A DNA stretch of 22,200 nt, taken from positions 1 to 22,200 of the forward strand of contig JAGBBE010000027.1 in NCBI GenBank assembly GCA_017938645.1. The letters are read 5' to 3'. Both the position numbers and the translations under genes were made by a program. This DNA is from Clostridia bacterium (GTDB lineage Bacteria > Bacillota_A > Clostridia > Christensenellales > Aristaeellaceae). This document shows positions 19,776-22,200 of this stretch, piece by piece (within the stretch, counting starts at the first letter, position 1; each line of letters starts with the position of its first letter). Below the pieces are notes generated by a model. It worked only from the letters and a program-made list of their open reading frames with translations, was not told where the DNA came from and made no database searches.

Positions 19776-19922
<147 letters not shown>

Positions 19923-20027: not shown

Positions 20028-21251
20028 TCAAGACCAGAAAGCTTCAAAGTTCTTAAATTCGTTTGCCTTCAACTCTCTCGTTGCATCTGCATAGATGTTC
20101 AAGGTGGTCGATACATCCGCGTGTCCCAGCGCGTCTTGAATCACCTTGATATTTACGCCAGCTTCACACAGCCTTGTCGTGAAAGTGTGCCGCAGACTAT
20201 GGCAACTGAAATGCGGAAGCATTAGAGCATCCTTCTTTCCTTTCAGCATGATCTCATCATTGCAGTCACGGACGATCCTGCGCAGAGCTTTGTTGAGTGT
20301 TCCCTGATGCTGAGGCTGACCGAAACGGTTCACAAAGATGAAGTCGGTATAGCCATCAACAGTCGCTTCGCATCGAACTCCTTCTGTTGCCTGTCGCTGC
20401 TTTTCCTCTTGAAATGCTGCTTTTACAAATTCCAGCATCGGAACCTGTCGGATGCCATTGACTGTCTTAGGCGTATGAACATTGCAATAACATCCATTGA
20501 CCGCATGCCTGTAGTAGACAAGAGTGTGGTTAACATCAATCGTTCCGTTTTCAAGATCAATGTCACACCAGCGAAGCCCTACTGCTTCCCCCACTCTCAA
20601 GCCGGTTCCAATCATGATTGCAAAAACAGGATACCAGTGCTGATACTTTTCGGATCTCCGCAGATAATGCAGAAACAGATCCTGCTCTTGTTTTGTCAGA
20701 GCGCGACGCTTCTCATTTCTGGAAGCAAAAGACTGCTTCAACTCTTTCATGACATTATCAGATGGATTGCGTCGGATGTACATATCATCTACAGCCATAT
20801 CCAGAACCTGATGAAGAACAGTATGAACATTGTCTATTGTCGAAATGGACAACCACCGTTCATCAGCAAGCGTATTGTAGAACCGCTTCACATCTGATTT
20901 CAAAAGGGTTGAGATCCGTTTTTGACCAAAACTGGGTGCAACAAACTGATTGTACATGTATTGATAGTTCTGAAAGGTATTATCCTTCAGACCGCGCTTC
21001 AGCTGCTTCCAAAGGATGAACATGTCATTGACCGTGACATTACGCGCTTCTGCTTTTATCCTGTCGCGTTCATCCTGTTCAATTTCAGCTTCCTTCTGCC
21101 GCAGTTCTTCCAAGGTCTGCGCATAGACAGAATGTCGCTCACCAGCTTCATCCGTCCATCTGTACTGAAAAGTACCTTTGCTGTGTCGGGACTCCCCCTT
21201 CCGCAAAATCGGAGTATGTTTGGTGCTTGATGTATTCACTTTGCTTCTCAC
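20028..21251 (-). CDS. int: Tyrosine recombinase/integrase, Tn916 type
   Basis: 407 residues. An N-terminal arm-binding domain (about 15-60, GTFQYRWTDEAGERHSVYAQT) is followed by a SAM-like core-binding domain (about 70-175) and a catalytic domain with Arg219 (GTGLRVGEAVGL), Lys262 (PKT), His351 and Arg354 (HSLRHTF), His377 (LGHADVSTT) and nucleophile Tyr387 (NIYAD). The catalytic set is complete, so it should be active. It integrates and, with an excisionase, excises the element; no xis is visible in the window. The start is GTG at 21251 (with AAGGG about 7 nt upstream), partly covered by a hairpin (21251-21277). A possible promoter lies at 21438-21465. It reads toward the attachment site, with its stop next to the GGTGTAC repeats. 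Confidence 0.93.
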   Translation of the reverse strand: MRSKVNTSSTKHTPILRKGESRHSKGTFQYRWTDEAGERHSVYAQTLEELRQKEAEIEQDERDRIKAEARNVTVNDMFILWKQLKRGLKDNTFQNYQYMYNQFVAPSFGQKRISTLLKSDVKRFYNTLADERWLSISTIDNVHTVLHQVLDMAVDDMYIRRNPSDNVMKELKQSFASRNEKRRALTKQEQDLFLHYLRRSEKYQHWYPVFAIMIGTGLRVGEAVGLRWCDIDLENGTIDVNHTLVYYRHAVNGCYCNVHTPKTVNGIRQVPMLEFVKAAFQEEKQRQATEGVRCEATVDGYTDFIFVNRFGQPQHQGTLNKALRRIVRDCNDEIMLKGKKDALMLPHFSCHSLRHTFTTRLCEAGVNIKVIQDALGHADVSTTLNIYADATRELKANEFKNFEAFWS

Positions 21252-21277: not shown

Positions 21278-21403
21278 AACAACCATTATCAGCTTAACAC
21301 ATGCACGTAGCGGAAGCAAGAAAAACGATACATGTTGGTTCATTATGTAAGCAAAAGCATCTTGGAAAGAACTCTTTACATCTCAGGTACAACTTTCTAC
21401 AAT

Positions 21404-21428
21404 GCGGCTTGAACTTACTTCAAGTCGC
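21404..21428. repeat. Inverted repeat, operator-like
   Basis: GCGGCTTGAA/TTCAAGTCGC (21404-21413, 21419-21428, 5-nt spacer), ten pairs with one G-T. It lies just downstream of the predicted integrase transcription start, a place where a repressor site or leader hairpin would act. Confidence 0.5.
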
Positions 21429-21437
21429 CTTCAACTA

Positions 21438-21465
21438 TCTATATCAAACAACAAAAGTGTGTCAA
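21438..21465 (-). promoter_or_regulatory. Possible integrase promoter
   Basis: The minus strand shows a perfect TTGACA (21460-21465), a 16-bp spacer and TATAGA (21438-21443). The -35 lies inside the long hairpin arm. The leader to the GTG would be about 180 nt. The weak -10 keeps this tentative. Confidence 0.4.
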
Positions 21466-21517
21466 AAAGCCTTGAGTAATATAGATTATTTACTCGAAGC
21501 ATTTTGACACACTTTTT
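21453..21517. terminator. Long bidirectional hairpin, probable terminator
   Basis: Arms AAAAGTGTGTCAAAA (21453-21467) and TTTTGACACACTTTT (21502-21516) are perfectly complementary over 15 bp. Pairing continues inward with two mismatches to a GAGTAA/TTACTC stem near the loop. T follows on the plus strand and TTTTG on the minus. It separates the leftward integrase from the rightward cargo genes. Confidence 0.65.
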
Positions 21518-21547
21518 ATTCTGGCAAATAGCAAAGTACCAGTTATA

Positions 21548-21610
21548 GGACAGCACCTAATATATAATACAGTCACAAGGTTGAGGGAAGCACAAACGAC
21601 CAAGACCTTG
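21548..21610 (+). promoter_or_regulatory. Cargo promoter/leader module, copy 1
   Basis: GGACAGCACCTAA (21548-21560), TATAAT (21563-21568), then ACAGTCACAAGGTTGAG and a downstream ACCTTG that can pair with CAAGGT (21576-21581 with 21605-21610). No consensus -35 exists at 17 bp; the conserved GGACArCACCTAA block occupies the place upstream of the -10, suggesting activator-dependent use. The same module precedes the next gene (22078-22130). Confidence 0.7.
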
Positions 21611-21637
21611 AAACAAAATGAAAGTGAGGAACACACC

Positions 21638-22048
21638 ATGAAGAAGTACGATATCGATTACATCAACGAGACCATCACCCTGACCGCCGCCTTCCTGCGC
21701 AAGGCCAGCACCCTTGGCACTCCTGAGTATAAGGAAATGATTGAGCTGCGCCGCAGCCTCCCTGACTTCCAGTTCGTGAAGGCCGAAGCCGCCAAGAAGA
21801 CCGCCAACAAGAATAAGAACCTGACCTACAAGCACATGCGCGAATACATCGCTAACAGCGCTGAAAGCAAGGAAGCTGCCGTCGCTCTGCTGGATGAGAT
21901 GAAGAAGGTCGAAGCCCTCTCTAAGATCCAGCCCAACCCCTACAAGTATGTTCAGGCTTGGTTCCTCAACCAGTTCCCTGAGTGCAAGCCGGTACATCTT
22001 GATAAGAACTCTGAAGAAAAGAATGCAACTGAAAAGGCTTCTGCCTGA
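21638..22048 (+). CDS. Small soluble protein of unrecognised family, tandem copy 1
   Basis: 136 residues, not recognised. It begins MKKYDIDYINETITLTAAFL and is predicted mostly helical: an Ala/Lys-rich middle (VKAEAAKKTANKNKNL), then YKHMREYIANSAESKEAA, a conserved-looking NPYKYVQAWFLNQFPE near 103-118, and a hydrophilic tail rich in Lys, Glu and Asn. No signal peptide, membrane helix, cysteine pair or catalytic motif is visible, so it is likely cytosolic, perhaps nucleic-acid or protein binding; that is only a guess. The ATG at 21638 follows GAGGA by about 7 nt; an earlier in-frame ATG at 21581 lies within the leader and is rejected. Codons are strongly biased to C/G-ending forms (AAC, AAG, CTG, ATC), unlike the nearby integrase, suggesting high expression. 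Confidence 0.8.
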   Translation: MKKYDIDYINETITLTAAFLRKASTLGTPEYKEMIELRRSLPDFQFVKAEAAKKTANKNKNLTYKHMREYIANSAESKEAAVALLDEMKKVEALSKIQPNPYKYVQAWFLNQFPECKPVHLDKNSEEKNATEKASA

Positions 22049-22077
22049 CAAAGGCAACTCATAAAGTCCGAAATAAC

Positions 22078-22130
22078 GGACAACACCTAAAGTATAATAC
22101 AGTCACAAGGTTGAGAGAGACACAACCTTG
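22078..22130 (+). promoter_or_regulatory. Cargo promoter/leader module, copy 2
   Basis: GGACAACACCTAA (22078-22090), TATAAT (22093-22098), the same ACAGTCACAAGGTTGAG stretch, and a perfect 8-bp leader hairpin CAAGGTTG/CAACCTTG (22106-22113, 22123-22130). Spacing between the conserved block and the -10 equals that in copy 1, and the -10 is 73 nt from the ATG versus 75. Confidence 0.7.
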
Positions 22131-22165
22131 AAACACCAAAAGAAATGAAAGCGAGGATACCCCAT

Positions 22166-22200
22166 ATGAAGAATTACGAAGTGGATTTCATCGAAAGCAA
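22166..22200 (+). CDS. Start of tandem copy 2 of the unrecognised small protein (cut by window end)
   Basis: Only 11 codons plus two bases are visible: MKNYEVDFIES, which aligns with MKKYDIDYINE of the preceding gene at every position with conservative changes. GCGAGGA lies about 8 nt before the ATG at 22166. An in-frame ATG at 22145 would add seven residues but lies in the conserved AAATGAAAGyGAGGA ribosome-site context, so 22166 is preferred. With its own copy of the promoter/leader module, this shows a tandem duplication of gene plus control region. Confidence 0.75.
   Translation, partial: MKNYEVDFIES

What the first reader, a model, noticed from the sequence alone, without database searches (positions are those of the whole stretch)
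21548..22200. Tandem copies of an unknown small protein, each with its own copied promoter and leader
Two paralogous starts (MKKYDIDYINE and MKNYEVDFIES) are each preceded by the same module: GGACArCACCTAA, TATAATACAGTCACAAGGTTGAG, an ACCTTG partner and AAATGAAAGyGAGGA. The module repeats every 530 bp, so gene plus control region was duplicated and the controls are retained. I recognise no family. Individually promoted, repeated, helical, lysine-rich cytosolic proteins at the edge of an integrative element could be a defence, counter-defence, immunity or chromatin-like function; the window does not say which.
Basis: partly seen in the sequence, partly recalled or inferred. Interest (0 to 1): 0.72.

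Follow-up and report, generated by a model that had tools for sequence, protein, structure and literature searches.

The report
Repeated-promoter gene array on gut-bacterial islands
DNA islands inserted in the chromosomes of gut Clostridia carry an ordered set of related small proteins of unknown function, here each preceded by the same predicted promoter whose messenger RNA should begin with a conserved hairpin; the set looks like a core part of the island, but what it does is not known.

Summary
Two copies of a promoter-leader module lie 530 bp apart (57 of 73 bases identical). The first precedes a 136-aa protein ("FAM"), the second the first 11 codons of another. FAM has no Pfam, NCBIfam or PADLOC match and one chance-level PHROG match.

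Relatives add three things. (1) The module is not just a copied gene-plus-control: elsewhere it also precedes unrelated small genes, and within four islands modules stay 70-93% identical while FAM paralogs are 25-42%. (2) FAM paralogs cluster in a tree by position in the array, not by island: ancient paralogs in a fixed order. (3) The mRNA start is a hairpin whose arms differ between islands yet stay complementary: 34 of 45 leaders against 6.7 in shuffles; 0 of 5000 arm-swaps as good.

The arrays sit on tyrosine-integrase islands with recurring partners (WYL and Cro-like regulators, resolvase, in some ArdC and restriction-modification genes). The window's island abuts a lysS 3'-end fragment.

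Best reading: FAM is the core, non-enzymatic, co-expressed protein set of an island family, acting in establishment or mobility. Architecture is well supported; function is inferred.

The parts
19776..19895 (-). 3' end fragment of a lysyl-tRNA synthetase gene (lysS), probably the left attachment junction of the island (right end of the fragment approximate)
   Evidence: translation; the 39 residues match lysine--tRNA ligases at their C-terminus, best E 6.5e-13. lysS 3' end is a known target of tyrosine-integrase ICEs in streptococci (PMC4701971, passages). The other end of the island is not in view.
20028..21251 (-). tyrosine integrase of the island, 407 aa
   Evidence: Phage_integrase 6.5e-32, Integrase_DNA (Tn916 type) 2.4e-12, Phage_int_SAM_3 2.8e-07.
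21453..21516 (.). long inverted repeat between integrase and array, T-run after it; most simply a terminator that insulates the array (oriT not excluded)
   Evidence: 27-nt arms, 89%; -29.6 kcal/mol, z -10.05; the same AAGTGTGTC..ACACACTT repeat lies before the arrays of L059 and L084.
21533..21552 (+). upstream box of module 1, overlapping the -35 region (AAAGTACCAGTTATAGGACA)
   Evidence: relatives have AAGTCC-N5-9-GGACA at the same distance from the -10.
21563..21568 (+). -10 hexamer TATAAT of module 1; predicted transcript start 21575
   Evidence: no mapped transcript.
21575..21610 (+). 5'-terminal mRNA hairpin of module 1 (outer stem 21576-21582 / 21604-21610)
   Evidence: conserved by covariation in relatives.
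21638..22048 (+). FAM gene 1 (clade A), 136 aa, unknown family
22064..22082 (+). upstream box of module 2, inverted repeat AAGTCC-GAAATAAC-GGACA
22093..22098 (+). -10 hexamer TATAAT of module 2; predicted transcript start 22105
22105..22130 (+). 5'-terminal mRNA hairpin of module 2 (8 bp, CAAGGTTG/CAACCTTG)
   Evidence: -10 kcal/mol, z -3.67.
22166..22200 (+). start of the second FAM gene (MKNYEVDFIES..., cut by the window end); resembles the second A-clade copy of L059 (QYEVDFINSK)
   Evidence: clade assignment inferred from 11 residues.

Best explanation
The window ends inside the first array of an integrative genomic island of Clostridia, probably inserted at the 3' end of lysS. The array encodes an ancient, order-conserved set of small paralogous proteins (FAM A, B, C; the window shows A1 and the start of what is probably A2). 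It is transcribed from near-identical modules: a box (often an inverted repeat) over the -35 region, a -10 hexamer, and an mRNA that begins within a few nucleotides with a stem-loop. The stem-loop most likely protects the 5' end or tunes translation. The module lets separate genes, FAM and unrelated small ones alike, be switched on together at similar strength, as an operon would. The FAM proteins show no conserved catalytic set and have a predicted bbaab domain, a basic linker and a three-helix domain. They most likely act together as a nucleic-acid- or protein-binding set when the island enters a cell or excises (establishment or mobility). Shown by computation: module, old paralogy with fixed order, hairpin covariation, recurring island partners. 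Inferred: promoter activity, co-regulation, hetero-complex, establishment/mobility role.
For: Module: 5 copies in the 3.1-Mb genome of L059, all in one array, reversed control 0; the 15-mer at 21 places in 11 of 300 genomes of that family, control 0; FAM on 9 of the 12 contigs and in 10 of the 11 genomes that bear it. Within four islands modules are 70-93% identical; FAM pairs there are 25-42% and pairs with unrelated proteins 18-28%, about background. Paralogs by position: 10 label changes against 36.7 shuffled, 0 of 200 as low. Hairpin: 34 of 45 leaders vs mean 6.7, max 13 in 200 dinucleotide shuffles; own vs swapped arms over 26 leaders, sum -232 vs -155 +/- 9.9, 0 of 5000. Island partners: integrase in the held sequence of 25 of 36 loci, same-strand WYL regulator downstream in 16 of 21 loci with at least 7 kb downstream (profiles seeded from 13 and 9 of these loci). 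ArdC confirmed by Pfam in L059. Few invariant residues: E30, M67, Y102, W108 over 49 rows, M67 and W108 over 104.
Against: 11 of 45 leaders fail the hairpin test (L007, L008, L010, L014 twice, L085, L144, L147 and one each in L089, L145, L150), and those of L084 pass but are weak (-4.0 to -4.8 kcal/mol). 9 of 26 leaders do not beat 90% of arm-swaps. No consensus -35 hexamer seen. The strict box occurs only ahead of modules, not at the WYL or HTH genes, so no autoregulated repressor is evident; ArdC is not under it. No MobA/VirD2 relaxase on a FAM contig in 18 genomes, though contigs may be incomplete, so how the island enters cells is open. 6 of 37 arrays show one FAM gene (one is the cut window, one a fragment). 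Structure models are middling (pLDDT 75.5 and 74.5, pTM about 0.4) and match no known fold. Nothing shows binding or complex formation.
Confidence: 0.5

Rival explanations
1. FAM and the co-promoted small proteins are counter-defence factors (anti-restriction, anti-phage-defence) made in a burst on entry, as in plasmid leading regions and pLS20/p576 establishment regulons.
For: Repeated regulatory module ahead of different small genes, among them acidic 160-aa proteins of pI 4.1; ArdC in 8 of 36 loci near the array; pLS20-family establishment regulons have a like design, and p576's ardC leader has short inverted repeats thought to lengthen mRNA life (PMC8708921).
Against: Establishment genes are described there as highly variable; FAM A/B/C keep a fixed order over divergent islands. 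ArdC itself is not under the module. 49 FAM members gave no shared PADLOC match: 9 models, one member each, best E 0.0011; that library holds defence, not counter-defence, models.
Confidence: 0.3
2. FAM proteins are transcriptional regulators of the island, perhaps of their own promoters, binding the AAGTCC..GGACA box.
For: Small, basic, predicted three-helix C-terminal domain; a weak profile match of that region to the NANOG homeodomain, E 0.038; the strict box lies only ahead of module genes.
Against: The homeodomain match is not significant; HTH_58 and Homez each match 1 of 49 members weakly (0.042, 0.0037). Two to four different regulators on one operator would be unusual.
Confidence: 0.12
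3. A recent tandem duplication of one gene with its control region, without further meaning.
For: Two alike starts and alike modules 530 bp apart. L059 has two A-clade copies.
Against: Position-wise clades across islands; the same module ahead of unrelated genes.
Confidence: 0.05
4. Integron-like cassette array, the module being a recombination site for the adjacent integrase.
For: Small genes in a row next to a tyrosine recombinase, each with a hairpin-bearing repeat.
Against: The integrase is Tn916-like and scores 69.8 bits against a 265 cutoff for the integron integrase model; gene order is fixed; the stem sequence varies while its place after the -10 is constant, as for an mRNA 5' end.
Confidence: 0.02

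Closest known systems
Establishment regulons of pLS20-family Bacillus plasmids (p576 EGeRS2; pLS20 EGeRS1)
   Same: One regulatory sequence repeated ahead of several small genes or operons of mostly unknown function; ArdC on the element; in p576 an operator by the promoter and short inverted repeats in the leader thought to stabilise the RNA (PMC8708921: abstract, passages, section 4.1).
   Different: Here on integrase islands without a detected MobA/VirD2 relaxase; ArdC is not under the module; the controlled core genes are ordered paralogs; no repressor identified. FAM has no match in the plasmid records searched.
Plasmid leading regions with single-stranded promoters and anti-defence genes
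   Same: Promoters with inverted repeats ahead of early genes (PMC8708921 section 4.1; PMC11541004 seen in search listing only).
   Different: As single strands the window's modules fold with TATAAT unpaired; no transfer origin shown.
5'-hairpin mRNA stabilisers such as the B. subtilis aprE leader
   Same: Stem-loop at the transcript's 5' end before a ribosome-binding site.
   Different: Sequences not compared; no half-life data here (PMC7509114: passages and reference list).
Tyrosine-integrase islands and ICEs inserted at housekeeping-gene 3' ends (Tn916-type integrases; lysS site in streptococci)
   Same: Integrase type, 3'-end target (PMC4701971 passages).
   Different: No conjugation genes noticed by eye in the ~17-kb island of L059; FAM array, WYL regulator.

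Membership tests
p576/pLS20-type establishment regulon | one conserved regulatory sequence upstream of several different genes or operons of the element | tested here: met
p576/pLS20-type establishment regulon | anti-restriction gene under the shared regulatory sequence | tested here: not met
   ArdC lies near the array on the opposite strand in 7 of the 8 loci that have it and on the same strand in L146; the strict box was found only ahead of modules in the 11 loci searched.
p576/pLS20-type establishment regulon | repressor with operators at these promoters and at its own | tested here: inconclusive
   An inverted-repeat box overlaps the -35 region, but no copy lies at the WYL or HTH genes.
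p576/pLS20-type establishment regulon | carried by a conjugative element | tested here: inconclusive
   No PF03432 relaxase on a FAM contig in 18 genomes; other relaxase families not searched.
p576/pLS20-type establishment regulon | rapid transient expression in the recipient | not testable with these tools
   No expression data.
single-stranded (Frpo-type) promoter | promoter elements paired within a hairpin of the transferred strand | tested here: not met
   TATAAT unpaired in all four folds (two modules, both strands).
integron cassette array | integron-type integrase | tested here: not met
   integrase_gron 69.8 bits, cutoff 265; Tn916-type DNA-binding domain.
known protein family for FAM | a Pfam, NCBIfam, PHROG or PADLOC match | tested here: not met
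   Window protein: 0 families in Pfam and NCBIfam at E<=1, one PHROG at 0.24, 0 PADLOC at 0.1. 49 members: scattered weak matches, none shared by more than 6 in Pfam or 3 in PHROGs (lists capped at 25 families) or 1 in PADLOC.
known fold for FAM | significant structural match | tested here: inconclusive
tyrosine-integrase genomic island | integrase plus insertion at a gene 3' end with target-end repeats | tested here: met
   Met in L059: rubrerythrin 3'-end sequence (identity of the gene) repeated left of the integrase and at the far end (45-, 23- and 22-bp matches). Window: lysS 3' fragment on the left only.

The most novel reading that the evidence does not exclude
FAM-A, FAM-B and FAM-C are subunits of an undescribed hetero-oligomeric machine that defines a family of integrative islands of gut Clostridia and is needed for them to enter, excise or replicate. 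When its genes are not one operon, stoichiometry is kept by homogenised promoter-hairpin modules, a way of holding genes in step that also recruits new small genes into the regulon.
Probability: 0.28. Interest if true: 0.78.

Novelty: new variant of a known kind. Interest (0 to 1): 0.6.

Why it matters
If right, it names a core module of a family of islands in Oscillospiraceae and other gut Clostridia, some of them carrying restriction-modification, whose spread is unexplained. It gives a sequence handle (module core plus FAM profile) to find them, and offers a natural case of co-regulation by repeated promoter-leader modules in place of an operon. Cultured carriers (for example Flavonifractor plautii ATCC 29863, L003) make it testable.

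Tried and rejected
Tried without result: the window's own genome is not held. FAM by tblastn in 50,697 phage and 72,556 plasmid records: none (a distant FAM). FAM alignment in IMG/VR: 28 stretches matched a pattern, none a relative. First genome-contig scan with the single protein: 72 stretches, none a relative; with the alignment, 14 of 66. Rfam on the window's end: only chance-level matches; nine loci gave two tRNAs. Structure: two AlphaFold2 jobs, both middling; no fold match; the VIA list is a second look, not a search. The 49-row Pfam scan gave scattered hits (best Alpha_kinase 0.00015, in 4 of 49) that I take for chance. MAFFT on the leaders is not structure-aware and was not used for counting; the arm-swap test replaced it. 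Closest relative of the window's chromosome: only 63-71% DNA matches for the longer hits, so no empty site was sought.

Considered and rejected: plain recent duplication; integron cassettes; ssDNA promoter; oriT for the 21453-21516 repeat (several islands have terminator-like hairpins at this place by eye, so terminator is simpler); CsrA-type leader (recalled, fits only some stems).

Rows dropped: the leader test began with 87 FAM ORFs; four duplicate loci (L155, L156, L160, L161) were left out, and 49 ORFs had a -10 of at least 5/6 within 130 nt. Four picks judged to be internal or false (L009 and L012 second genes, L144 second gene, L143 first) were removed, leaving 45. With all 49 the result is 36 vs mean 7.1, max 15; with 41 distinct leaders 30 vs 6.4, max 11. 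The -10 of L089's first gene was probably picked 5 bases too far and that of L145 is also mis-set; both count as failures. The tree left out the four duplicates and L090; long branches (L084_3of4, L142_1of3, L153, L147_1of2) are unsure, and near-copies help the position signal. The island count used home-made profiles seeded from the same loci (13 integrase seeds, 9 WYL seeds).

Papers searched for a description of such islands; none seen in those listings, in a library that lacks most subscription journals.

Full report
The window and the repeat. The window is Clostridia-like chromosome up to about 19.4 kb, then a fragment that matches the C-terminus of lysyl-tRNA synthetases on the minus strand (best E 6.5e-13), then a Tn916-type tyrosine integrase, a long inverted repeat, and the array. 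The FAM protein (136 aa, pI 9.0, 19 lysines) has no Pfam or NCBIfam match at E<=1, one PHROG match at 0.24 and no PADLOC match at 0.1.

Relatives. The 5.8-billion protein set gave 72 relatives of 102 candidates and, with a 49-row alignment, 177 of 3036 (120 listed), mostly on short contigs and without names. None was found in phage or plasmid records. Genome contigs gave 14 loci, among them Oscillospiraceae, Butyricicoccaceae and Anaerovoracaceae (origins as printed). A search of 396 genomes of the order of L001 found FAM in 9, each with at least two matches.

The module is a shared signal, not only a duplicated gene. In the genome of L001/L059 the 23-base pattern, with up to 3 mismatches allowed, occurs five times in 3.1 Mb, all in one array, the reversed control none. 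The five precede an 83-aa protein, an 88-aa protein followed by FAM, an acidic 160-aa protein, and two more FAM genes. In 300 genomes of the family the 15-mer occurs at 21 places in 11 genomes, control 0. FAM lies on 9 of the 12 contigs that bear it. Of the other three, one contig ends 34 bases after the 15-mer (G151), one genome has FAM on another contig (G236), and one contig (G137:C3) carries two modules but no FAM, which that genome has elsewhere. Within four islands the modules are 70-93% identical pairwise; FAM pairs are 25-42% identical, and pairs with other proteins 18-28%, about background.

The leader is an RNA structure. The base seven after the -10 is A in 39 of 41 distinct leaders, and a helix of at least 5 bp starts within 6 nt of it in 34 of 45 leaders, against a mean of 6.7 and a maximum of 13 in 200 dinucleotide shuffles (the 11 failures are listed). 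Stems differ between islands (CAAGGTTG/CAACCTTG, GTGAGG/CCTCAC, GAAGG/CCTTC, CAGGATGAGG/CCTCACCTG, AGAGG/CCTCT). Own arms pair better than swapped arms: 26 leaders with distinct starts, sum -232 kcal/mol against -155 +/- 9.9, none of 5000 permutations as low; 17 of 26 beat 90% of their swaps and 9 do not. The three FAM leaders tested in L084 are weak (-4.0 to -4.8 kcal/mol).

The box. AAGTCC-N5-9-GGACA lies 29 bases before the -10 (start to start) and overlaps the -35 region. In the 11 loci searched this strict form occurred only ahead of modules, apart from the same palindrome read on the other strand in L009 and L012; it misses decayed forms, such as those of L083 and window module 1. Other islands have another box there (e.g. 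TATAACGACTGG). As single-stranded DNA the window's modules leave TATAAT unpaired, against an Frpo-type promoter.

The paralogs are old and ordered. In a tree of 79 FAM proteins the position labels (first, mid, last, single) need 10 changes against 36.7 when shuffled (0 of 200 as low). Ten middle copies form one starred clade and ten last copies of the three- and four-gene arrays another. The window's FAM pairs with the first copy of L059 (67%), in a starred clade of 13 rows of which 10 are first copies, two lone copies and one the second copy of L059. That second copy starts QYEVDFINSK, much like the window's cut second frame (MKNYEVDFIES). So the arrays hold distinct old paralogs in a fixed order, sometimes as one operon, sometimes with a promoter each. 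Last copies of two-gene arrays fall into more than one clade, so the labels are not single groups (first 6, last 4, mid 3 changes). Of 37 arrays 21 have two FAM genes, 8 three, 2 four and 6 one (the window counts as one because its second is cut, and L090 is a fragment). Seven have two or more FAM genes with their own -10 (L014, L059, L083, L084, L089, L150, L157); the window is the eighth by its second module.

The islands. Home-made profiles find an integrase in the held sequence of 25 of 36 loci and a same-strand WYL regulator downstream in 16 of 21 loci with at least 7 kb downstream. Resolvase is seen in 12, ArdC in 8, a Cro-like HTH in 15 and an 89-aa protein in 15 of 36; contig ends limit these counts. 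Two layouts recur. In one, FAM, cargo, resolvase, ArdC and the 89-aa gene on the other strand, HTH, WYL (L059, L084, L148, L152; L083 without resolvase). In the other, FAM, HTH, the 89-aa gene, resolvase, cargo, WYL, with no ArdC found (L007, L009, L013; L003, L004, L006, L011 without a resolvase hit). L143, L145, L149, L002 and L157 lack the downstream WYL in what is held. ArdC in L059 is confirmed by Pfam (1.6e-26 and 6e-38). PADLOC scans of likely cargo in nine loci gave restriction-modification proteins in five: type I in L157 and L142, type II in L009, a methylase and a IIG-like protein in L001, a type III methyltransferase in L083 that lies beyond WYL and may be outside the island. L013 matched a protease-type model, and L003, L007 and L010 nothing. 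The L059 island lies at a rubrerythrin 3' end (gene identity): 45-, 23- and 22-bp matches of that end lie left of the integrase. No MobA/VirD2 relaxase lies on a FAM contig in the 18 genomes tested.

What the protein may do. Both models give bbaab, a linker and three helices, middling confidence, no fold match. Invariant residues over 104 rows are M67 and W108, which speaks for a binding rather than a catalytic protein (inference). With the fixed order and the recurring place on islands I favour a co-expressed binding set used in establishment or mobility (0.5 for the whole statement, about 0.85 for the architecture alone), with counter-defence next (0.3).

Comparison. The design is nearest to the establishment regulons of pLS20-family plasmids (PMC8708921: abstract, passages, section 4.1). 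It shares the repeated regulatory sequence and the presence of ArdC but fails or leaves open other defining features, so I say it works like one and do not file it as one. The 5' hairpin recalls RNA stabilisers such as the aprE leader (PMC7509114, passages). Novelty: a new variant of a known kind, with a protein family unnamed in the libraries searched.

Noticed in passing
L044, L045, L052, L054, L056, L058 (IMG/VR contigs): The same start TATAATnnAGTCACAAGGTTGAG lies on viral contigs, in 5 of these 6 with a TTGACA-like -35. FAM was not looked for in these loci beyond the scan.
   Followed up: partly
L059:100-1280 and 19555: Three copies of the rubrerythrin 3' end left of the integrase: signs of repeated insertion at one site.
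   Followed up: no
L143 (G083:C24): Three ArdC genes within about 32 kb and repeated backbone genes suggest islands stacked in tandem.
   Followed up: no
L090:2270-2380: Iterated TTACATCTTTTGA-like repeats before the array; other islands have ACAACTTT/ACATCTTT repeats at this place, perhaps integrase arm sites or iterons.
   Followed up: no
P0029, P0052, P0068: FAM proteins whose two halves belong to different groups, one with a TetR-type start (PF00440); recombination between array copies or assembly error.
   Followed up: no
L059:4154-4633 and L084:8125-8607: Acidic 160-aa proteins (pI 4.1) under the module; the L059 one has 10 relatives and no Pfam, phage or plasmid match: candidates for DNA mimics.
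   Followed up: partly
window 21388-21429: TACAACTTTCTACAA followed by a small hairpin, shared with L059:2699 although the two integrases point opposite ways.
   Followed up: no
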